A stretch of DNA of 10,973 nt, taken from assembly GCA_003170935.1 (NCBI GenBank), contig PMYA01000152.1, forward strand, positions 1 through 10,973, in the 5' to 3' direction. The first letter of the stretch is position 1. Every line of letters begins with the position of its first letter. This document shows, piece by piece, positions 1-10,716 of the stretch. Position numbers and translations under genes: made by a program. The notes beneath the pieces were generated by a model. The model was given only the letters and a program-made list of their open reading frames with translations. It made no database searches and was not told the DNA's origin. Source of the DNA: Methanobacteriota archaeon. Lineage in GTDB: Archaea; Halobacteriota; Bog-38; Methanoflorentales; Methanoflorentaceae.

Positions 1-138
1 GTAATAAGGCGTCCGTTGCGCTTTAGCGCTTTTGGGCACGCTGATTTAACGCTACTTGCCTCGCAACCTATTTATAAAGATATAGTATATAAAGACACGG
101 AAATTTCAACACAACGTGAGGGTTTAAGAGCAATTTGA
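1..138 (+). CDS. Possible C-terminal end of an upstream gene (partial)
   Basis: The first frame of the window is open from base 1 to a TGA at 136-138, giving 45 codons that end in GLRAI. The stop overlaps the TTG start of the next gene in a TTGA arrangement, as is common for translationally coupled genes. I do not recognise the family. The peptide is moderately charged with no cysteine motif and no membrane segment. An open run of this length occurs by chance roughly one time in ten, so the coupling-type overlap is the main argument. If the gene is real, the AT-rich box at 71-94 lies inside its coding sequence and the activator gene may be co-transcribed from further upstream. Confidence 0.35.
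   Translation, partial: VIRRPLRFSAFGHADLTLLASQPIYKDIVYKDTEISTQREGLRAI
71..94 (+). promoter_or_regulatory. Candidate TATA-type promoter for the RACo gene
   Basis: An AT-rich stretch contains TTTATAAAG (71-79) and TATATAAAG (86-94), both good matches to an archaeal TATA box. A start about 25 nt after the second box would leave a leader of about 20 nt that contains GAGGG (118-122) before the TTG at 135. Read as bacterial, TATAGT (81-86) is a possible -10, but its best -35 (TTGCCT, 56-61) is 19 nt away. The element may be fortuitous if the open frame at 1-138 is coding. Confidence 0.4.
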
Positions 139-2006
139 AGAAAGAATTCAAGGTTATTTTTAAGCCTGACAACAAAACTGTCAAAGTAGAGCGGGGCACT
201 ACCGTACTTGATGCGGCCACAAGCTCAGATATCTACATCGACAGTATCTGCGGCGGCAGAGGCAAATGCGGCAAATGTAAGGTCCTCATTGAAGGGAGGG
301 TCGAGTGCGACGAAACGGACCTCCTAACTGACGAAGAAAAAGCGCATGGCTATTTTTTAGCGTGTTTAGCTCGGGTCACAGGCAATTTGAAAGTGACGAT
401 ACCCAAAGAAAGCAGAGTGGAGTCGCACCAAATACTCATGAAAAGCGTGATCGCCCCCTTGCCAGCGATTTGTCCACCTGTGTCTAAAGTGCAGATTTCC
501 CTTACTCCGCCGTCACTAGCCGATTACGTAAGCGACCTTGACAGAGTGACGCACGCGCTACGCAATCCTGATATGGGGCACGTAACGATCGGATTGCCGA
601 CCCTGAAGAACTTGAGCAAAGTACTCAGAGACAATCAATGGAACGTGAACGTGACGCTTATGGATCTCTGGGACAGGAAAGAAATTATCGACGTCGGTCC
701 ACCTTCAGACAACGACTTAATCGGGATAGCGGTGGACATAGGCACGACAACAATCGTCGTCGAGTTAGTTGACTTGACCTCTGGCAAGGTGATTGACGCG
801 CGATCCGACTACAACAAGCAAGTTGTATATGGTGAGGACGTCCTTTCGCGTGTGATGTACACCGAGGAACACGAAGATGGCCTCCAGAAGCTGACGAGCA
901 CAATTAGGTACGGCATCAACGACCTCGTGCGAGAGCTCGTCATCGAAAATAACATGAAATACGAAAAGATTTGCCGCGCAGTCCTTTCAGGCAATACTGT
1001 GATGATGCACCTTTTTTATGGGTTGGATCCGAAATACATACGCCACGAACCCTACATACCGGTGATGACTTTCGTTCCCCAGATGAAGGCGGTGAAACTC
1101 GGACTGAGCGTCAATCCAAATGCTTACATCTATACGCTTCCGTGCCGGAGCAGCTACGTCGGCGGCGACGTCACAGCTGACATAATTGCGTCAGGAATGA
1201 GTGATATCAAGGACACTTCGTTGCTTATCGACGTCGGAACCAATGGTGAGGTAGTACTCGGGAATGATACGTTCCTCGTGTCGTGCTCTTGTTCGGCGGG
1301 GCCAGCTTTTGAAGGTGGGGAGGTAGAGTTCGGCGTACGAGCGATGAACGGAGCAATAGAGCGCGTTTGGATCAACAATGGCCTAACAGAGTACTCCACC
1401 ATCGGCGACGCAAAAGCAAAGGGCGTTTGCGGATCGGGCCTTATTGAACTCATCGCAGAGCTCTTCAGTAGCAACGTAATTGACAGAACGGGAAAGATAC
1501 AGAAGGATGAGAACAACGTTAGGATTGAATTAGGGAGCAACGGCAACCAGTTTGTTGTGGCGTTCAAAGAGGACACTGCCATCGACAAAAACATTGTAAT
1601 TACCGACGTAGATATTCAGAACATATTGCGAACGAAGGCCGCTGTCTACGCGAGCTGTAGCGTGGTGCTCAAAACGTTTGGCTATCAATTCAGTGACCTT
1701 AGCAACATCTTCATCGCGGGGAGTTTCGGCAACTACCTCGACGTGAAGAAAGCGATCACGATTGGCTTGCTGCCTGACCTTCCGCTTGATAAGTTTAAGT
1801 TTATCGGTAACGGGGCCCTTGGTGGGGCACGAATGGTTTTGCTATCACAAGACCTGCAAGACAAGGCTGCAGAAGTTGTCGGGAATATGACACACATCGA
1901 GTTAAGTGTCAGCAGCATGTTTTTTAAAGAGTTTACATCAGCATTGTTCATTCCTCACACGGAACTTGACCAGTTCCCCAACGTTTCCAAACGAGGTTAT
2001 GTATAA
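135..2006 (+). CDS. acsV: RACo-type reductive activator of corrinoid iron-sulfur protein
   Basis: This 623-residue protein is close to the usual RACo length. It has an N-terminal plant-type [2Fe-2S] domain with ligands C39, C45, C48 and C77 (spacing 5, 2 and 28). A linker region follows, then a C-terminal ASKHA ATPase domain (DUF4445 type) with phosphate-1 motif DIGTTT near residue 201, phosphate-2 motif DVGTNGE near 365 and adenosine motif IAGSFGNYLD near 526. Known RACo proteins use ATP to drive the uphill reduction of inactive Co(II) corrinoid to Co(I). RamA-type relatives do this for methylamine corrinoid proteins, but linkage to acsC/acsD points to the CODH/ACS corrinoid protein as partner. 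It is cytoplasmic. The start is TTG, because an in-frame TGA at 117-119 leaves no ATG or GTG option, and the Shine-Dalgarno site is weak. Function is assigned by domain architecture and context; confidence is high. Confidence 0.93.
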   Translation: MKKEFKVIFKPDNKTVKVERGTTVLDAATSSDIYIDSICGGRGKCGKCKVLIEGRVECDETDLLTDEEKAHGYFLACLARVTGNLKVTIPKESRVESHQILMKSVIAPLPAICPPVSKVQISLTPPSLADYVSDLDRVTHALRNPDMGHVTIGLPTLKNLSKVLRDNQWNVNVTLMDLWDRKEIIDVGPPSDNDLIGIAVDIGTTTIVVELVDLTSGKVIDARSDYNKQVVYGEDVLSRVMYTEEHEDGLQKLTSTIRYGINDLVRELVIENNMKYEKICRAVLSGNTVMMHLFYGLDPKYIRHEPYIPVMTFVPQMKAVKLGLSVNPNAYIYTLPCRSSYVGGDVTADIIASGMSDIKDTSLLIDVGTNGEVVLGNDTFLVSCSCSAGPAFEGGEVEFGVRAMNGAIERVWINNGLTEYSTIGDAKAKGVCGSGLIELIAELFSSNVIDRTGKIQKDENNVRIELGSNGNQFVVAFKEDTAIDKNIVITDVDIQNILRTKAAVYASCSVVLKTFGYQFSDLSNIFIAGSFGNYLDVKKAITIGLLPDLPLDKFKFIGNGALGGARMVLLSQDLQDKAAEVVGNMTHIELSVSSMFFKEFTSALFIPHTELDQFPNVSKRGYV

Positions 2007-2171: not shown

Positions 2172-2918
2172 ATGCAAACCATTGCCATAACGGGTAAAGG
2201 TGGAACAGGCAAAACGACGTTTGCCTCTCTCCTTGTAAAACATCTGAGCACTAATAACAAAGCCATTTTGGCAGTTGACGCAGATCCCAACTCAAACTTA
2301 GATATGCGACTGGGACTTCGCGTTCAGCAGACAATTGGCGACTTACGAGAAGATCTGCTTAAAGAATCTTTTCCCGCAGGGATTGCCAAAAATGAGCTTA
2401 TAGAGTACCAAACACGTCTAGCTCTCGTTGAAGGGGATACCTTCGACCTTATCGCTATGGGACGGCCCGAAGGACCCGGATGCTACTGTTATATCAACAA
2501 CGTGTTACGGGATGTCCTAGACAGACTCTCGGTCAATTACGACTACGTTGTCATTGACAACGAAGCGGGTATGGAGCACCTTTCTAGACGGACAACGAGA
2601 GACGTTGATGTGCTGTTCATTATAAGCGACGTCACCGCGCTTGGTATAACCACTGCAAGTCGGATCAAAAAGCTTTCCGAGGATCTCAATCTCGTCGTAG
2701 GAAAAACATATTTGGTCCTGAATGAAGTCAAAGACAGCGTGCCCGACAGCATCAAGGGTCAGATCAAGCAGCAACAGCTAGATCTCATCGGGGCCATTCC
2801 GACAGATCCCTTAATTGAAGAGTATGCGTTGGAAGGAAAGTCTTTTTTTGAGCTGCCGAGTGATTCGGCTGCGCTAAAAGCAGTTCGCGAAATCGCAGAG
2901 CGCTCTATAGCACCTTAA
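2172..2918 (+). CDS. cooC: CooC-type CODH nickel-insertion ATPase
   Basis: This is a 248-residue MinD/SIMIBI-class P-loop ATPase. The deviant Walker A GKGGTGKTT starts at residue 8, VDADPNSN follows near residue 35, and the Walker B-like VVIDNEAGMEHLSRR lies near 126-140. The CYC pair (C104, C106) matches the CxC motif through which CooC dimerises and binds metal. CooC proteins couple ATP hydrolysis to nickel delivery into the C-cluster of CODH, and AcsF-like relatives mature ACS. I chose the ATG at 2172 because it places the P-loop at the N-terminus as in the family. The frame is open further upstream to about 2037, but that extension looks unlike any known CooC. The gene ends 11 nt from the oppositely oriented acsC. 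Whether this copy serves the C-cluster, the A-cluster or both in the fused enzyme cannot be told from sequence. Confidence 0.93.
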   Translation: MQTIAITGKGGTGKTTFASLLVKHLSTNNKAILAVDADPNSNLDMRLGLRVQQTIGDLREDLLKESFPAGIAKNELIEYQTRLALVEGDTFDLIAMGRPEGPGCYCYINNVLRDVLDRLSVNYDYVVIDNEAGMEHLSRRTTRDVDVLFIISDVTALGITTASRIKKLSEDLNLVVGKTYLVLNEVKDSVPDSIKGQIKQQQLDLIGAIPTDPLIEEYALEGKSFFELPSDSAALKAVREIAERSIAP

Positions 2919-2929
2919 CCTTGAATTCG

Positions 2930-4264
2930 CTATCCATTTGACAGCTCCTTCAAATACTTCGGAAGAGCGGATGAGTCCTTTACACCAACAATGACTTCCC
3001 AGCCCGTGAGCTCCTCTAATTTCATTTTCAGCATCGCGATCATGCCGGGAATTATGAGCTTTCGGTGATCTACCTTATCTGCAACCTTGTATTCCGTGAG
3101 AGTTTCTGCGATTTTTTCTGGCGTAAACTTGTCAGCGGCGAATGCCGTCATCACCGATAAACCCTCGGTATCTACCACGAGAAGATGTGCAGGAACCTTG
3201 CTTGCCTCAATATCGCTTGCCACAGTAAAATACGTAAGTGAGAAGTTAGACGTGACGATGACCGGTGAGTTACGATTTGGCTTTCCTATTTCATAGAGGC
3301 CTGGATTGACCTGTATAAGCGCTTGCGGATCCGTATAAATATTCGTTCTTAAAGTGGTGAGGGGGTATAGCCGCGCAGGATCAAGGTCTTTGAAAATAAT
3401 TAACGAGGTATATTTCAGCGTTCCTATCGCCGCTCTAATTGCTTGAGTTTCAACATCTGCGCCGTTATCCAAGTTTATCATAACAGGAAAACCTAACGGC
3501 CGGAAAAGCTTCTTGACGCTAAGGCGACGCAGAATCGTCAACCATTCGAGTGTCTGGCGCAGGGGCTTAGCACCGAGGTTTAGATCTAAAACGATATCCT
3601 CTATGCCCTCACTTTTAGCTACTTCCGACAGTGAGACGAGCTCATCGATGTCATCTGCATAAAGCGCGAGCGGGCACGCGTACTCCTTGGCAAGCTTTGC
3701 CATTGACGCACAGTTGTTTGTGCTGCCCGCGTAGATTAACGGCTTAGACTTCGATACAACTTTGAGGCCCGATTCAACGACCTCAGGATCTTCACTCATC
3801 AGAACTAACGGCAATCCACTGTTATCGTTCACGAGCGTCACCGCGTCAGAGAAACGCTGTGCGTCTCCTTTCGCTTTGACCCCGATCAAGTCAACTCCCG
3901 AAACAATGCCAATTCGCTCGTATTTCATCGCATCAAGCTTCTTAGCCCTTTCAACAATTCTTTGGTCATCGACGTCATCTTCGATTATGAGCGCATATGC
4001 CGTCTGGTTGAAGAACTTCTTTTCGTGTCTGAAAAGCTCTGTTTCACCCCCGATTTCTATATTACCTACTTTCACAGTGCGCATAGGTGGCGAAGCGGAA
4101 CTTTCTAGTTGTTCGACCACATCAGGGGACACGTATGGACACTTCGTGAGTTCTGCCTGTTTGTTAGCTAACATCATAGCAAACGCTAAGCACGTAGGTA
4201 CCCCACATTCGCCACAATTCTTTTTAGGCAACAGTTTGAATATGTCGAGGGCTGTCATCGGCAT
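2930..4264 (-). CDS. acsC: Corrinoid iron-sulfur protein large (gamma) subunit
   Basis: This 444-residue protein matches AcsC/CdhE in length. The N-terminal [4Fe-4S] domain has C17, C20, C25 and C42 (NCGECGVPTC then KCPY), typical of the subunit whose low-potential cluster reduces the cobalt. The middle is a TIM-barrel region, and the C-terminus, from about residue 320, contains the cobamide-binding domain with an IPGMIAMLKMKLEE-like helix and a GVKDSSALPKYLKE tail. It accepts the methyl group from a methyl-tetrahydropterin and passes it to the A-cluster nickel of ACS. It is last in the minus-strand operon. Its ATG lies 3 nt after the acsD stop, and GGTGGG (4277-4272) sits 7 nt upstream, supporting the first ATG rather than the one two codons later. 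No AcsE methyltransferase is visible nearby, so methyl entry must rely on a gene elsewhere or on the corrinoid protein itself. Confidence 0.95.
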   Translation of the reverse strand: MPMTALDIFKLLPKKNCGECGVPTCLAFAMMLANKQAELTKCPYVSPDVVEQLESSASPPMRTVKVGNIEIGGETELFRHEKKFFNQTAYALIIEDDVDDQRIVERAKKLDAMKYERIGIVSGVDLIGVKAKGDAQRFSDAVTLVNDNSGLPLVLMSEDPEVVESGLKVVSKSKPLIYAGSTNNCASMAKLAKEYACPLALYADDIDELVSLSEVAKSEGIEDIVLDLNLGAKPLRQTLEWLTILRRLSVKKLFRPLGFPVMINLDNGADVETQAIRAAIGTLKYTSLIIFKDLDPARLYPLTTLRTNIYTDPQALIQVNPGLYEIGKPNRNSPVIVTSNFSLTYFTVASDIEASKVPAHLLVVDTEGLSVMTAFAADKFTPEKIAETLTEYKVADKVDHRKLIIPGMIAMLKMKLEELTGWEVIVGVKDSSALPKYLKELSNG

Positions 4265-4267
4265 GGT

Positions 4268-5242
4268 CTATCCCACCAATTCATCGACAACGTTTCTGAT
4301 GATCGCTACAGACTTCGGGTGCCGGAGTATTAACGCGTTAGCACCTGCCATTAAAGCGGCAAGCGCAGTGGCGACTTCCCAAAAGACCGCCCTATCTCTC
4401 TCATCGCCGAGATTGGCGTCTATACGATACGCTTCCTTCGCGCTCCACGCAACACTAATATCGGCGATCATCGGGGATTGGAGCATTTTGTCTCCGACGA
4501 GGCCGGCGAGTTTGATTCGCTCCATCGCTGAATAAGCGTACTCCATCCCAAAGCCAACCCCCGCCATAAGCGGGTCACTAACAATATGATCGGGCGGTAC
4601 GCCAAACTCAGTAAGCATAATGTTGAGCTGCTTAGCGATATTCACATCGATGTTAGAGAACGCTACGACCGCGTGGTCGTTAGCAGTGGCAGCAACGGCT
4701 ACGGATTTATAACCATCCTGTTCAGCACGTGCGAGCAAACACTGTTCTCCTTTCGCAGCTTCACCGCAAATCTCGAAAACGCGGGAGTCCTTTTCATAAT
4801 CGCCGCTTCCTTGAATGACTAACGGAGCTTTAACTTGCTTGAGCACCGTTGAAACGAGCGATGCTGCATCCTCAGCGCTGATGTTTTCTTCTTCTGGATT
4901 TGTGCTCAGCAGTTTCAAACAGACAAAGTCTGCGCCATATATATTCACGCACGCGTCTGCCCACGCGACAGGATCTCTTATAACATCGCCAACTTCATCG
5001 ATGATGAGCTGAGGGTAGTCTTCACCAAGGTGATCGATCACTTCCATACCGATAGCAGGTCGCGAAACTGCGCCCTCGAACGCCAAAAACGGAAGGGTCG
5101 TCTCTCCGCCCAAACGCAGTTTCCTATCCCTAGTTCCCCCTTCGTCATCCGTTGCACCAAATGCGACCTCTTTTATCTTCCCGCTCCAATTCTCCTTCGG
5201 TATTGCCACCATTACAGTTACCCCAAAGTTACTCACGACCAC
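4268..5242 (-). CDS. acsD: Corrinoid iron-sulfur protein small (delta) subunit
   Basis: This protein of up to 324 residues is a TIM-barrel AcsD/CdhD family member. It is recognised by the GATDDEGGTR segment near residue 29, PAIGMEVIDH near residue 61, the GSGDYEKD motif, AEQDGYKSVA, and the ending ANALILRHPKSVA. It is close to bacterial AcsD in length (about 320) and lacks the extra regions of longer archaeal CdhD forms. It pairs with AcsC to form the heterodimer that carries the methyl-corrinoid. The listed start is a GTG that follows the acsAB stop by 1 nt, implying translational coupling. An ATG ten codons in (5212) is a credible alternative that gives an N-terminus similar to known AcsD. 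Neither has a strong Shine-Dalgarno sequence. Confidence 0.94.
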   Translation of the reverse strand: MVVSNFGVTVMVAIPKENWSGKIKEVAFGATDDEGGTRDRKLRLGGETTLPFLAFEGAVSRPAIGMEVIDHLGEDYPQLIIDEVGDVIRDPVAWADACVNIYGADFVCLKLLSTNPEEENISAEDAASLVSTVLKQVKAPLVIQGSGDYEKDSRVFEICGEAAKGEQCLLARAEQDGYKSVAVAATANDHAVVAFSNIDVNIAKQLNIMLTEFGVPPDHIVSDPLMAGVGFGMEYAYSAMERIKLAGLVGDKMLQSPMIADISVAWSAKEAYRIDANLGDERDRAVFWEVATALAALMAGANALILRHPKSVAIIRNVVDELVG

Positions 5243-5243
5243 G

Positions 5244-8200
5244 TCAGAACATACCCATTGGAGGCATATGCAGCGCAGGGTGATCGACCTTTGCCAAGTA
5301 CTCCGCTAATTCATCCGCATCTGTCGTAATAGTTTCGTCAGCAATCTTGTTTACTAAGTCAGGCAAGTCGAGTTCCTGTGCTCGCTTCTGAAGGTCTTCT
5401 CGCATCGCTTCTTTGAGCTCTTTAGGCATCCAAACGACGCGCGCTAACCCCCCGTCTGCACGGATAAATTTCTTACTCGTAATGAACTGCCTGCCGACGC
5501 CGATGAACCCGGGCGTTTGATTACCTCCGCCAACAGAGCCCGCGAGCGTTGAGAACTTCATACCGATAGGCGTCATACCTGTATATTCACGGTTGACCAC
5601 TATAACGCCCTGTAGGTCGCTGCTGATCGCAACGATACACTCAAAGCATCCGCACGACGTCTGCGGATCCTCCATCATCGTGTATTGATTCATCCGCTCG
5701 ATGTGGCCATGCGTGAGCTCTTTGACCGCTTCGTTTACGTTCGACCACTGGCCCTTCTGCTCGTCAATCGCAGCGCCCTTCTCAACCGGCTGATTTGGTC
5801 CGTTTGGATCGATGCTGAATCCCGCAGCCGCATCGAGCCAGTTTAGTGCGCCGCACAGCCCCAAGCGTTCAGGAGAGATGATACAGACATGACTCGGAGC
5901 GAAGCTCTGACATAGCGTACACGCGTAAAACGTGTCAACGCTCTCGTCTGTTAGCCCTGCAATACGGTGATCCCGCTCTGCATACGATTCCATAGCCTCA
6001 GGCAGATGTTTTTCCACCTCCTTTTCGTCAGTGATGATTGTGACTTGTATCCGGCTGATGATACCGCCGAGCTCCTCCTTCATTTTATGATAAAGGATAT
6101 CACCGAAGTTCTTGAAGCGTAACCCATTGGCCACACTATTCTTGCTCAGACGCACCCAAAGCAAGTTTCTCTGACCCGTATGCCACGCGCCCTCTGCGTA
6201 ATTGATGAACTGGTGGATGCGTCGTTCGACGACGGGCTCAAACTCCTTTTTCATATGCTTTCCGTACACTTCAACAAGAATCCCAAGCGCTGACACACTG
6301 CCCTCTTCCATCTCATCGACATCCTTCCCGATGAGCGTGATCTCGCCGTCCTTAACCTCGTCTGCATCGCGGATCTTCACGAGCTCAAACACCTTTGTCT
6401 TGGTCGGACCTCCACACTCGACGTAGGTCTGGGGCTTGCGCACCGTTTCTCCCTCGAAGGCAAGCCCGTAAGCGACCGGTAACGAGACCTCGCCGACGGT
6501 GACCTGCATGTTCCGCATCTCGATTGCGTGCGCAACGATCTGACTGTAATCCGTCTCCACCTCGTACTTGCCCGGCACTTCCTCCACATCTTGATCGGTG
6601 ATCGTCGGTGAGCCATTGAACATCACCGCGAACTCAATAGCTGCCTTAATGTCGTCGATAGGACCTAATTGGACGACGACAACTTTCGGACGCTTTGTAA
6701 GATACTCTAAGAGCCCTGTTCGATCGCCCGGCTTGACGTTCCCGAACGTCAGCGCTGCGCGGATCGCAAAGCTTAGCCCGTGAATAGCTTGCGTGAATTC
6801 ACCCACGCAAAACAGGAGCCGGTCAAGTCCCTTACGCTCGCCTATCTCGATGCCTGCCTCGGCAATCTGCTGGATGGTGTCAAATGTGGGGATTACGAGC
6901 ATGCCCTTACTCTGGCAATCTCTGATGATCTTTGCTAACAGTTTAGGGTCCTTTGCCTTTCCTACCAAGACTAAGACCCCTGGTATTGTATCATCAACGA
7001 ATGAGATGCCCAACCTCCGGAGCACCTCGTCTGCAATGAACCCAGTGTATGGAGTATCCGCATACGGGTCAGGATTATCGATGTACTTCAGGGCCTCAAC
7101 GATCTCTGCAGCGACCATAGTCGCTTCTCCTGAAGCCACAGCGTTGTCAAACGTGTACTCCTCCCTGATCTTGCCCCTCACCTCTCCGAGGATTCGCGGC
7201 AACTGCGCCAGTTTCGTCACTCTTTCGCCCGTCCACGCGGTGATGCACGGAAGATAGTACCCGGTGCTTGGGTATCCAATCTCCTTATCACGCCCGTGTT
7301 GACGTATCGCCTTATTGAGGAGCTGATCTGCGTATCCGGTTGCGATTATAGCCCCGTCGATCGCTTTCTTGTAGAGGGCCTCTTTTGGTGTGACAGGCTT
7401 ACCTACGTCCGGGGTGGTGCCATTCCAATACGTGACCCCGCCGTCGAGTTCACTAAGCGCGTTCATCTTCCATCTGCGGTATTGAACGGTGTTCACTAAC
7501 GTTTTCGCGGCAATCGTAGGATCGGGTTCAAATATGAAGTGCCCGCCGTAAACGTCCTTTGCAGTCGCCTGGACCACCTCATCAGCAAGAGGGCTTCCCT
7601 TGATAAATGGATAGACCCCGACGTGGGTGGGCCATCCCGTTGCGACGCACCACGTTCCAATCGCTACAGCTTTTTCGCTCATCGCTTCTGGAGCACTCGC
7701 AACGATGGGAAGGTCCTGTATGTCAACTCCCATCACCTGAGCGAGTTCGCTTACGAAATTTTCGACGCGCGAATTGTCCACGCATGACCCCATATGGAGC
7801 ACAAGCGGCAAGGACTCACCAATGTTCTTTTCGCCGACTTCTTTAAGGAACGCCTTAAGCGACTCACCTGCGTGCTCCTCGACTGCTTCTGGCGCCAACA
7901 AACCGTGCTTCGCGAGGGATTGCGCCGCACAACCGGTTACAAGTGTTAGTATGTTATTTCTGACGAGCTCTTTGGCGATAGTCAAATGACCAAGGTCGTG
8001 TTCAGCCTTAGCGGGATTGTTACACCCAGCGATAAGTGCGATGCCCTGAACCTCCCCGCTGCGAATCTTATCAGCGAGATACTGGAGCGGTTCATCTTCA
8101 TTAAAGGCGCTTAACAACGATTTTATGTACTCCAGGCTAAATCCTGCGACGACCTTGCTCGAAATGTTAGGGATAGAGATTTTTGTGGGATCCCTATTCT

Positions 8201-9377
8201 TGTACGCTTCAATAGCAACATTCACGATCTCCTTAGCACCTTCACGCGCCGCTGCTTCATTGAATTCGATGTGCGTGTCGCCCGGGATACGGGTAATCGG
8301 CATTGTCGATATCAGCTTTGTATGGAAACACTGTGTCCAGAATCCAACCGACGGCGCAATGCATTGATAATCAATGACCATCGCGTCGATGACACCTGTC
8401 ATTATTGCCAATTCTTGGCTAGCGAAATTGGTGACAATCGGGATCCCTCTTCGCATGAGCAGTTCGTTGGCAGTGCAACAAATACCGACGATATTTATTC
8501 CCTTGGCTCCTGCGGCAATTGCATTGTCTTTAAGCTCATCTGCAGCGTCGCAAATAACTTCGCCAAGAATGGGATTATGCCCATGTACACAGACGTTGAT
8601 ATGGTCCTCCTTCAGCGCGCCGAGATTTGCCTGGGACACTACCATTTGCGGTACGCCGAACAAGACGTCAGAAAGGTTAGAGCTGATGTTCTCTCCAGTC
8701 ACATCACCGAGCGAGCATTTGATGCCCCCAAAAATCAATGGCACGGGATCTGCATCACAGCCCATATGGGTCCGGTGCATGACTTCGGTAATTCCCCTGT
8801 CAATGTTTGTCGCAACGACGTCATTTCGCTCAAGCAGTTCGAGCCGCTTTGCGGGAAGCATAATTTTGAGCCAGGTACAGGCTTCTTCCTCATTCCTTGA
8901 GAAGTCCTCCAAAGCTGAATTCGCTACGGCCACTGCAAGCTCATTTACGTTCTTATTGTTCTCCAAACCGAGCTTTGCAGCAAGGGACCGTAATTTCGCC
9001 TCGTCTTTAACGCGATAGTCGGGTGCCTTACCTTCGCCGACGCTCTTTAGGGCATGTGCAAGATGCCTTCCGTGATCAGAGTGAGCAGCACAGCCGCCTG
9101 CCATCATTCGGATCAAGTTTCGCGCTACAATAGTGTAATCTTTAGCACCGCAGATACCTCTCTGTGGCTCTTTTCCAAAAGGATTGATCCGACAAGGTCC
9201 CTGCAAACAGATTCGACAACACAGGCCTGACTCACCAAAGCCGCATTGTGGCTGCATTAAGTCAGCCCTATCCCACATCGTCTTCATCTTGTCCCGCTCG
9301 GCAAGCGGCATCATTTCGAGTGCCGCAGGGTCCACGGTCATCGATCTTGGATCCGCTTTATTACGTCTCTTGTCCAT
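5244..9377 (-). CDS. acsA-acsB: Fused CO dehydrogenase-acetyl-CoA synthase (AcsA-AcsB)
   Basis: A single 1377-residue polypeptide joins a complete CODH (about 1-645) to a complete bacterial-type ACS (about 648-1377). CODH part: C45 and C53 fit the dimer-bridging D-cluster; C54, C57, C62 and C76 fit the B-cluster; H267, C301, C339, C452, C483 and C532 fit the nickel-iron C-cluster; H99 and K569 match the catalytic acid-base residues. ACS part: C1153, C1156, C1165 and C1175 ligate the A-cluster cubane, and the C1242-G1243-C1244 motif binds distal nickel. These spacings (3, 9, 10, 67, 2) equal those of Moorella AcsB with a constant offset of 647. F1159 corresponds to the A-cluster phenylalanine. 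The enzyme interconverts CO2, CO and acetyl-CoA in the cytoplasm. The reading frame is uninterrupted. The ATG overlaps the preceding ferredoxin gene by 17 nt, and acsD follows after 1 nt. An archaeal alpha/epsilon/beta arrangement is ruled out by the bacterial-style CODH length and the complete ACS N-terminal region. The fusion should be checked against raw reads. Confidence 0.96.
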   Translation of the reverse strand: MDKRRNKADPRSMTVDPAALEMMPLAERDKMKTMWDRADLMQPQCGFGESGLCCRICLQGPCRINPFGKEPQRGICGAKDYTIVARNLIRMMAGGCAAHSDHGRHLAHALKSVGEGKAPDYRVKDEAKLRSLAAKLGLENNKNVNELAVAVANSALEDFSRNEEEACTWLKIMLPAKRLELLERNDVVATNIDRGITEVMHRTHMGCDADPVPLIFGGIKCSLGDVTGENISSNLSDVLFGVPQMVVSQANLGALKEDHINVCVHGHNPILGEVICDAADELKDNAIAAGAKGINIVGICCTANELLMRRGIPIVTNFASQELAIMTGVIDAMVIDYQCIAPSVGFWTQCFHTKLISTMPITRIPGDTHIEFNEAAAREGAKEIVNVAIEAYKNRDPTKISIPNISSKVVAGFSLEYIKSLLSAFNEDEPLQYLADKIRSGEVQGIALIAGCNNPAKAEHDLGHLTIAKELVRNNILTLVTGCAAQSLAKHGLLAPEAVEEHAGESLKAFLKEVGEKNIGESLPLVLHMGSCVDNSRVENFVSELAQVMGVDIQDLPIVASAPEAMSEKAVAIGTWCVATGWPTHVGVYPFIKGSPLADEVVQATAKDVYGGHFIFEPDPTIAAKTLVNTVQYRRWKMNALSELDGGVTYWNGTTPDVGKPVTPKEALYKKAIDGAIIATGYADQLLNKAIRQHGRDKEIGYPSTGYYLPCITAWTGERVTKLAQLPRILGEVRGKIREEYTFDNAVASGEATMVAAEIVEALKYIDNPDPYADTPYTGFIADEVLRRLGISFVDDTIPGVLVLVGKAKDPKLLAKIIRDCQSKGMLVIPTFDTIQQIAEAGIEIGERKGLDRLLFCVGEFTQAIHGLSFAIRAALTFGNVKPGDRTGLLEYLTKRPKVVVVQLGPIDDIKAAIEFAVMFNGSPTITDQDVEEVPGKYEVETDYSQIVAHAIEMRNMQVTVGEVSLPVAYGLAFEGETVRKPQTYVECGGPTKTKVFELVKIRDADEVKDGEITLIGKDVDEMEEGSVSALGILVEVYGKHMKKEFEPVVERRIHQFINYAEGAWHTGQRNLLWVRLSKNSVANGLRFKNFGDILYHKMKEELGGIISRIQVTIITDEKEVEKHLPEAMESYAERDHRIAGLTDESVDTFYACTLCQSFAPSHVCIISPERLGLCGALNWLDAAAGFSIDPNGPNQPVEKGAAIDEQKGQWSNVNEAVKELTHGHIERMNQYTMMEDPQTSCGCFECIVAISSDLQGVIVVNREYTGMTPIGMKFSTLAGSVGGGNQTPGFIGVGRQFITSKKFIRADGGLARVVWMPKELKEAMREDLQKRAQELDLPDLVNKIADETITTDADELAEYLAKVDHPALHMPPMGMF

Positions 9378-9789
9378 ATATCAATGCACCACACTTGCAC
9401 GCAAGCACGCACGATAGCTCCGTTGCTCCTTGACAGAGATCACATTTTATCGCTTCGTTTTCGCGCCTCTGTATCGCCCCAAATGGGCACGCATCTACAC
9501 ATTCAAAACACCCATTGCAGCGTTCTTCATCAATAGTCACGACACCACCATCACTTTTTGTAATCGCTCGTGCTTCACAAGCTTCAATACACTTCGGTCG
9601 CTTACAGTGAAGACACCTCGTCATATGCAATTTGCCATCCTTAAGACCGATTTTTAGCCTCGAAAGAGGGCGAGGATACTCACTCATTGCATCATTGATG
9701 TCCCCTGCCGTGCTATGCCTCAGCGCGCATGCAAGCTCGCACGACTTGCATGCCGTACAATTCTTCGGAACATACCTAACGATCAACAT
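9361..9789 (-). CDS. cooF: CooF-like four-cluster ferredoxin
   Basis: This 142-residue iron-sulfur protein has four cysteine quartets: CTACKSCELAC (from residue 11), CLHCKRPKCIEAC (near 59), CNGCFECVDAC (near 92) and CDLCQGATELSCVLAC (near 116). This is the pattern of the CooF/HydN/DmsB family carrying four [4Fe-4S] clusters. There is no signal peptide or membrane segment, so it is cytoplasmic. In characterised systems CooF is the direct electron partner of CODH. Being first in the operon and overlapping the fused CODH-ACS gene by 17 nt supports that role here. It is shorter than Rhodospirillum CooF (about 190 residues). The physiological acceptor or donor beyond it (hydrogenase, ferredoxin, other) is not shown in this window. 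The start ATG at 9789 puts the first cysteine at residue 11, as usual. Confidence 0.92.
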   Translation of the reverse strand: MLIVRYVPKNCTACKSCELACALRHSTAGDINDAMSEYPRPLSRLKIGLKDGKLHMTRCLHCKRPKCIEACEARAITKSDGGVVTIDEERCNGCFECVDACPFGAIQRRENEAIKCDLCQGATELSCVLACKCGALIYGQET

Positions 9790-10119: not shown

Positions 10120-10392
10120 ATGGGGCTTGTGAGCGTCCGCTTATTCGCAAATCTACGCGAAATCGTAGGTAAACCGCAGCTCGTTTTGGAGGCAAGCACC
10201 ATTCGTGAGGTACTAACGACGCTTCGATCAGAGCACCCTGCGTTGCAGCCGCTACTCTGCGAAGACGGTGATGTCCGACCATACATCACGATCCTAATCA
10301 ACGGTAATAACATACGCGATATGGATGCGCTTGCTACGATTCTTTCCGATGGCGATGAAGTCGCGATCTTTCCTCCTGTTTCAGGCGGTTGA
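10120..10392 (+). CDS. moaD: MoaD-like molybdopterin synthase small subunit
   Basis: This 90-residue beta-grasp, ubiquitin-like protein has the family start VSVRLFANLREIVG and end [14 protein letters not shown]. The C-terminal Gly-Gly is the residue pair that MoeB-type enzymes adenylate and thiocarboxylate, so that MoaD can give sulfur to the molybdopterin precursor. The length is standard (80-95). Archaeal relatives can also act as small protein modifiers (SAMPs), so a second role is possible. The neighbours modE-like and moeA support cofactor synthesis. Its last 12 nt overlap the convergent regulator gene. The ATG at 10120 is chosen because it begins the first beta strand and fits the promoter spacing. 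Confidence 0.88.
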   Translation: MGLVSVRLFANLREIVGKPQLVLEASTIREVLTTLRSEHPALQPLLCEDGDVRPYITILINGNNIRDMDALATILSDGDEVAIFPPVSGG

Positions 10393-10716
10393 ACCGGACA
10401 ACGACCACTCACTGAGGTCAACGTACCACTTCGCGAGCTGGTTCAACGGACCTTCCACGCCACGATAATCCACGAGAAGCTCATGGCCGAACGCTGTCAG
10501 CTCGACCCCTCTCTTTGCCACCTCGCTTCCTGTCAACAAGTTGACGACTGGCCGTTTTTCGACGATGGTTATGCGTTCTAGAGCGTAGCGGTAGGTCATG
10601 CCCAACTTGCGTGCCGCAGCGCTTATGGAGCCAAGTTTATCGATTTCAGCAAGAAGCCTCATAGTGCCAAGGCCAAAACGTATTCCCCCTCTTCTTCGAC
10701 AAACCAAAGAGTGCAC
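10381..10716 (-). CDS. modE: ModE-type single-domain HTH regulator
   Basis: This 111-residue protein matches the N-terminal winged-helix domain of ModE. It has [20 protein letters not shown] and [10 protein letters not shown], the recognition helix-turn-helix, then a wing region ending in [14 protein letters not shown]. The C-terminal molybdate-binding (Mop) domains of Escherichia coli ModE are absent, as in many archaeal and some bacterial single-domain forms. Ligand sensing, if any, must therefore differ. The start is GTG at 10716: an in-frame TAA lies seven codons upstream, and the domain needs the GGIRFGLG segment that precedes the internal ATG at 10662. A TTG at 10707 is an alternative. 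The gene is divergent from moeA and overlaps the moaD 3' end, so it probably regulates the molybdenum/tungsten cofactor genes around it. Confidence 0.85.

What the first reader, a model, noticed from the sequence alone, without database searches (positions are those of the whole stretch)
5244..9377. Natural fusion of CODH and ACS into one 1377-residue enzyme
Seen directly: one uninterrupted frame carries a full CODH and a full ACS, with all metal-cluster ligands present. The ACS half keeps Moorella AcsB spacing exactly (offset 647), and the CODH half keeps CooS spacing (mostly offset 6). Known: in characterised bacteria the two subunits are separate and form an alpha2beta2 complex with an internal CO tunnel, the ACS N-terminal domain contacting CODH. 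Inferred: the fusion would fix 1:1 stoichiometry and may secure CO channelling or aid assembly. I do not know of a characterised enzyme of this form, but cannot rule out that such fusions are recorded in genome surveys.
Basis: partly seen in the sequence, partly recalled or inferred. Interest (0 to 1): 0.88.

Follow-up and report, generated by a model that had tools for sequence, protein, structure and literature searches.

The report
Single-protein CODH/ACS in peatland methanogens
Two enzymes that are separate proteins in characterised organisms, one making carbon monoxide from CO2 and one building acetyl-CoA from it, are joined here into one long protein of bacterial type in a peatland methane-producing archaeon, where it seems to stand in for the usual archaeal enzyme complex.

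Summary
The fusion is real. One 1377-residue frame (5244-9377, minus strand) holds a complete CooS/AcsA-type CODH, a linker of about 20 residues and a complete three-domain AcsB-type ACS. It is no assembly accident: 4 of 6 other same-genus genomes carry it across the junction, and 119 of the 120 listed database hits (of 1573) have the same four Pfam domains. The host is an mcrA-bearing archaeon, by inference GTDB genus Bog-38 ('Ca. Methanoflorens'). Archaeal cdhA and cdhB were found in 0 of 7 genomes of the genus, so this acetogen-type cluster is probably its only CODH/ACS. Nearest relatives are other fused archaeal proteins. Among 392 genomes of the phylum no fused frame was listed outside the genus. 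Stand-alone versions occur even next to Bog-38, so fusion and splitting have both happened. Most likely it works like Moorella CODH/ACS with its two subunits tied together. I found no description of the fusion in print, but sequence databases already hold it and one CODH survey lists fused CODHs in a table I could not read. No advantage of the fusion is shown.

The parts
5244..9377 (-). CODH-ACS fusion gene, 1377 aa
7449..9377 (-). CODH half, residues 1-643
   Evidence: aligns with Moorella CODH 24-661 over residues 10-643
7386..7448 (-). linker, about residues 644-664, variable in length and sequence among fused proteins
   Evidence: stretch matching 634-673 mostly 29-40 residues long in 123 rows, 13 in three; model pLDDT 85 and 81 for 641-650 and 651-660
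6498..7385 (-). ACS N-terminal domain A1, about residues 665-960
5247..6497 (-). ACS domains A2 and A3 with the A-cluster ligands, about residues 961-1377
9361..9789 (-). 4Fe-4S ferredoxin-like protein, 142 aa, overlapping the fusion start by 17 bases
4268..5242 (-). acsD/cdhD-type small CoFeSP subunit
   Evidence: NF003376 375 bits, cut-off 280
2930..4264 (-). acsC/cdhE-type large CoFeSP subunit
   Evidence: NF003195 534 bits, cut-off 306
2172..2918 (+). CooC-like nickel-insertion ATPase (P-loop family by Pfam; the name CooC is inferred from context); ORF opens at 2037, likely start 2172 by comparison with L021 (248 aa)
135..2006 (+). RACo/AcsV corrinoid activator
   Evidence: RACo_C_ter 326 bits; AcsV model 631 bits, below its cut-off of 800

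Best explanation
It is a genuine one-gene fusion of a class 1 (Moorella-type) CODH with its ACS, probably the only CODH/ACS of the methanogen genus Bog-38 and gained laterally. Shown here: one frame, the cluster ligands, an A1 domain, conservation in relatives, an acetogen-type gene cluster around it, and no archaeal cdhA or cdhB found in the genus. Inferred: two fused chains pair through their CODH halves to make the usual particle of two CODH and two ACS units; CO made at the C-cluster passes through an internal tunnel to the A-cluster of an attached ACS; a methyl group delivered by AcsE and the AcsC/AcsD corrinoid protein, and CoA, complete acetyl-CoA. The linker lengthens the C-terminal extension with which class 1 CODHs already hold ACS, so joining the chains needs no new geometry. 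The effect would be obligate co-production and no loss of ACS from CODH.
Confidence: 0.8

Rival explanations
1. The long frame is an artefact: a lost stop or an indel in the assembly joined two neighbouring genes.
For: Separate neighbouring CODH and ACS genes are normal elsewhere, and close stand-alone ACS proteins exist.
Against: Same junction in 4 of 6 other genus genomes and in 119 of 120 listed hits; coding-type substitution across the junction.
Confidence: 0.01
2. The fused frame is made into two proteins after all, by cleavage in the linker or by a second translation start.
For: The linker is the least conserved part. A Met stands at residue 638 in the window protein.
Against: In many other fused rows shown that position is Leu, not Met, so an internal start there is not a general feature; the DNA before Met638 shows no spaced ribosome-binding motif to my eye.
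Confidence: 0.1
3. The fusion is close to neutral: two adjacent genes of an already tight complex joined and split from time to time without changing how the enzyme works.
For: Fused and unfused rows interleave: at least 7 changes on the ACS tree and 2 on the CODH tree. Stand-alone forms lie next to Bog-38. Linkers vary freely.
Against: Fused forms hold over large divergence (50-91% identity), and fused and paired unfused complexes part cleanly on the concatenated tree (1 change, 100/99).
Confidence: 0.4
4. In Bog-38 the enzyme mainly works backwards, cleaving acetyl-CoA or oxidising CO to reduce ferredoxin, rather than fixing carbon.
For: The reaction is reversible by general knowledge; a ferredoxin gene overlaps the start; Ile914 may narrow the tunnel.
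Against: PMC12203004 (passage) reports expression of hydrogenotrophic methanogenesis genes in Bog-38, for which assimilation is the simpler use; A1-bearing enzymes are argued to favour synthesis (PMC11474084, passage).
Confidence: 0.12

Closest known systems
Class 1 bacterial CODH/ACS (Moorella thermoacetica, Carboxydothermus hydrogenoformans; PDB 1OAO, 1MJG, 7ZKJ)
   Same: Both halves align nearly end to end; same cluster ligands, A1 domain, alcove residues and a C-terminal extension on CODH.
   Different: One chain instead of two; archaeal host; Ile at the place of Ala265; the tryptophan of the ACS gating helix (IKMVDW) is Asp here (ISFVDD).
Unfused archaeal relatives (names given: Thermoplasmata, Candidatus Thermoplasmatota, Methanobacteriota)
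   Same: Closest separate CODHs by sequence after three fragments of fused frames; ACS 61-69% identical; the CODH tail (for example YWSGET) resembles the fusion linker (YWNGTT).
   Different: Two proteins; that they lie on one contig is inferred from equal contig length, not read from DNA.
Archaeal ACDS complex (CdhABCDE) of methanogens
   Same: Same overall reaction; ACS domains A2 and A3 are homologous (cdhC model 460 bits, cut-off 356).
   Different: CODH half scores 59 bits on the cdhA model (cut-off 781); no cdhB in the genus; A1 present here, absent from the methanogen ACS of PMC11474084 (passages).
Stand-alone A1-bearing ACS of other genomes of the phylum
   Same: A-cluster ligands and A1 kept in 26 of 27 rows.
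   Different: Not fused (frames 639-739); bulky residues at Ala222 in 27 of 27 rows.

Membership tests
Class 1 bacterial-type CODH/ACS | Ni-Fe C-cluster, B- and D-cluster ligands of CODH | tested here: met
Class 1 bacterial-type CODH/ACS | A-cluster ligands of ACS | tested here: met
   118 of 118 fused rows, window included in the alignment
Class 1 bacterial-type CODH/ACS | ACS with N-terminal domain A1 | tested here: met
Class 1 bacterial-type CODH/ACS | CODH N- and C-terminal extensions that bind ACS | tested here: inconclusive
   C-terminal extension present by length and alignment; contact with A1 not measured; N-terminal lead is short
Class 1 bacterial-type CODH/ACS | Two separate subunits in an alpha2beta2 complex | tested here: not met
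   one open frame; hence filed as a fused variant, not as a plain member
Class 1 bacterial-type CODH/ACS | Internal CO tunnel from C- to A-cluster | tested here: inconclusive
   Ala110 and Ala222 positions kept in 118 of 118, Ala265 is Ile in the 11 Bog-38 rows (mutant names recalled)
Class 1 bacterial-type CODH/ACS | CODH and ACS activity | not testable with these tools
   needs protein
Archaeal ACDS (CdhABCDE) | CdhA-type CODH | tested here: not met
   59 bits against a cut-off of 781
Archaeal ACDS (CdhABCDE) | CdhB epsilon subunit in the genome | tested here: not met
   0 of 7 genus genomes, controls positive; genomes incomplete
Archaeal ACDS (CdhABCDE) | ACS without A1 | tested here: not met
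   A1 present

The most novel reading that the evidence does not exclude
A peatland methanogen genus runs the carbonyl branch of acetyl-CoA metabolism on a laterally acquired, acetogen-type CODH/ACS made as one chain that tethers ACS to CODH, in place of the archaeal complex; the tether is a selected trait that changes CO retention or assembly.
Probability: 0.35. Interest if true: 0.8.

Novelty: new variant of a known kind. Interest (0 to 1): 0.6.

Why it matters
A single-chain CODH/ACS has fixed 1:1 stoichiometry and a tethered ACS, so it is a natural test of whether ACS must leave CODH during the cycle and whether tethering improves CO channelling, and a one-gene handle for engineering CO2 fixation. 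[quoted passage not shown] The window's mcrA-bearing genus contradicts this. So, by sequence, do stand-alone A1-bearing ACS proteins in 33 other genomes of the phylum, 31 of them with an mcrA match. Marker searches that look only for archaeal cdhA would score this genus as lacking CODH/ACS.

Tried and rejected
Assembly artefact: rejected. Archaeal complex elsewhere in the genome: not found. Fusion unique to this genome: rejected. Fusion in other families of the phylum: none among the listed matches of 392 genomes (weaker matches were not listed).

One clean origin of the fusion: not settled. The ACS tree (quick LG+G4, 96 rows) needs 7 changes. The CODH tree (quick, 131 rows; the chosen bacterial outgroup was not one side of a branch; fragments P0117, P0239, P0240, P0241, P0292 and P0301 were set down by hand as fused) needs 2. 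The careful concatenated tree (44 rows) needs 1 but has no outgroup and only 9 unfused pairs. The trees disagree on the place of the small fused group P0035/P0037/P0042/P0043. Rows dropped: one search kept 231 of 252 ACS parts (ambiguous starts, broken fused frames and intein-bearing rows left out) and then one row per 85% identity cluster; one search took 234 CODH parts down to 130 plus the window; one search kept 35 fused rows with both halves nearly complete. In one search the base of the Bog-38 group is unresolved, so the split is inferred from an outgroup of 12 fused rows and 1 unfused.

A first mapping of CODH ligands by recalled numbering failed. A shift by one residue mended only the B/D part and His93, so the C-cluster statement rests on counts at the query positions. 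The C. hydrogenoformans gate positions used wrong numbering and are not used. In one search one of 27 rows lacks the ligands, probably because the longest ORF of L042 (717 aa) is not its ACS (679). A survey of Thermoplasmatota genomes was not possible: 'relatives' stayed inside the phylum and the one genome-contig scan gave five loci, all in peat or fen records. PADLOC gave nothing. The second structure job was not used.

Literature: ten answered searches listed no paper that I could see describing a CODH-ACS fusion. Passages only were seen of PMC12203004, PMC10805028, PMC6146748, PMC9982363, PMC13240472, PMC9239135, PMC9635834, PMC12289521, PMC11474084, PMC9012536, PMC8621161, PMC13056359, PMC10992861 and PMC11264602. 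Of PMC6344411 (Inoue 2019) I saw passages and parts 2 and 3 of 7 of its main section. [quoted passage not shown] PMC9239135 (passage) already reports CooS, CooF and AcsB/AcsE genes in Thermoplasmatota. The Adam 2018 paper and the DOI tried for the original Methanoflorens genome paper are not held.

Full report
What is there. The minus-strand frame 5244-9377 encodes 1377 residues from an ATG to a single stop. Residues 15-638 match the anaerobic CODH catalytic subunit and 673-1374 the bacterial ACS, both over their curated cut-offs. Against solved structures, 10-643 align with Moorella CODH and 654-1374 with Moorella ACS. The C-cluster positions are invariant in 118 fused proteins.

It is not an accident. 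Of 6 other genomes of the genus, 4 carry the frame across the junction (one of them with a break later in the ACS half), one holds only residues 782-1377 at a contig end and one has no match. The five loci found in named records are peat and fen MAGs, one of them isolate 'bog_38'. Their coordinates coincide with those of unnamed same-genus genomes, for example L023 with G004 and L021 with G003. Two papers equate GTDB Bog-38 with 'Candidatus Methanoflorens', a hydrogenotrophic methanogen (PMC10805028 and PMC12203004, passages). That the genus of the window is Bog-38, and its phylum Halobacteriota, is my inference from these names. Of 1573 database hits 120 were listed, and 119 of those have all four Pfam domains; the exception, P0117, ends early in the ACS half. 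Near the junction, differences between relatives fall mostly on third codon positions, without gaps. The linker itself is the loosest part.

Context. The window reads ferredoxin, fusion, acsD and acsC on one strand, a CooC-like gene and acsV on the other. In L021 an AcsE-like methyltransferase follows (224 bits, cut-off 259, on an ORF cut by the locus end). In G003 the matching pterin-binding gene lies about 5 kb from the fusion on the same contig, and in the window's own genome on contig C182. Upstream in L021 lie archaeal pheS/pheT and molybdenum-cofactor genes. mcrA is present in 5 of 7 genomes of the genus, the window's included. Archaeal cdhA and cdhB are found in 0 of 7, with both methanogen controls positive. 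The large CoFeSP subunit is single-copy in 6 of 7. All seven genomes are incomplete (61-90%), so the absence rests on the seven together.

Distribution and history. Among 392 genomes of the phylum, 38 have an ACS over the curated cut-off: 5 of the genus, and 33 others with frames of 639-739 residues, too short to be fused. In the ACS tree the window protein sits with fused archaeal proteins, far from those stand-alone ones. Names given by sources for fused proteins include Thermoplasmata, Methanomassiliicoccales, Methanobacteriota and Halobacteriota; I could not survey those genomes. Fused and unfused rows interleave: 7 changes on the ACS tree, 2 on the CODH tree, 1 on the concatenated tree of complexes. 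Five stand-alone ACS proteins 84-90% identical to the window's fall in the Bog-38 group, whose outgroup is 12 fused rows of 13, which points to a split there. Lateral gain by Bog-38 is inferred from this pattern; its direction was not tested.

Novelty. Ten literature searches showed no description of this architecture, but the library holds open-licence papers only, and Inoue 2019 lists fused CODHs in a table I could not see. Bacterial-type CooS and AcsB genes in Thermoplasmatota are already in print (PMC9239135, passage). Databases already hold the fused protein, in several cases under a double name from one source. I therefore call it a new variant of a known kind. The stronger point for specialists is a methanogen genus with an A1-bearing, acetogen-type CODH/ACS and no archaeal one found. 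Methanocella paludicola is reported to lack CODH/ACS (PMC8621161, passage), so a regain by transfer in Bog-38 is conceivable; this is speculation.

Limits. There are no expression or protein data, and any advantage of the fusion is unknown.

Noticed in passing
P0081, P0114 (fused); P0201, P0203, P0204, P0215 (ACS only); P0163: Inteins interrupt the ACS at the residue matching C1156, an A-cluster cysteine, in six proteins; in P0163 the break lies near 1241-1267, beside C1242-G-C1244.
   Followed up: partly
33 other genomes of the phylum; loci L028-L055 except L029 (27 of them): Stand-alone A1-bearing ACS, not fused. 31 of 33 genomes have an mcrA match and 17 of 33 no archaeal cdhA. A-cluster ligands kept in 26 of 27 rows, but bulky residues at tunnel position Ala222 in 27 of 27, as if they no longer receive CO through a tunnel.
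   Followed up: partly
P0183-P0206, P0219, P0220: A clade of stand-alone ACS (13 rows; some named Methanomassiliicoccales or Methanomassiliicoccus) nests inside the fused clade.
   Followed up: no
G003:C19:17955-18101: A 49-residue CODH remnant (61% identity, one TGA) on the same contig as the fusion.
   Followed up: no
G001:C32:35593-39592; P0117: Frame breaks inside the ACS half in single records, possibly sequencing or assembly errors.
   Followed up: no
10120-10392 (+) and 10381-10716 (-): MoaD/SAMP1-like and ModE-like genes beside the cluster, with a MoeA gene next to them in L021.
   Followed up: no
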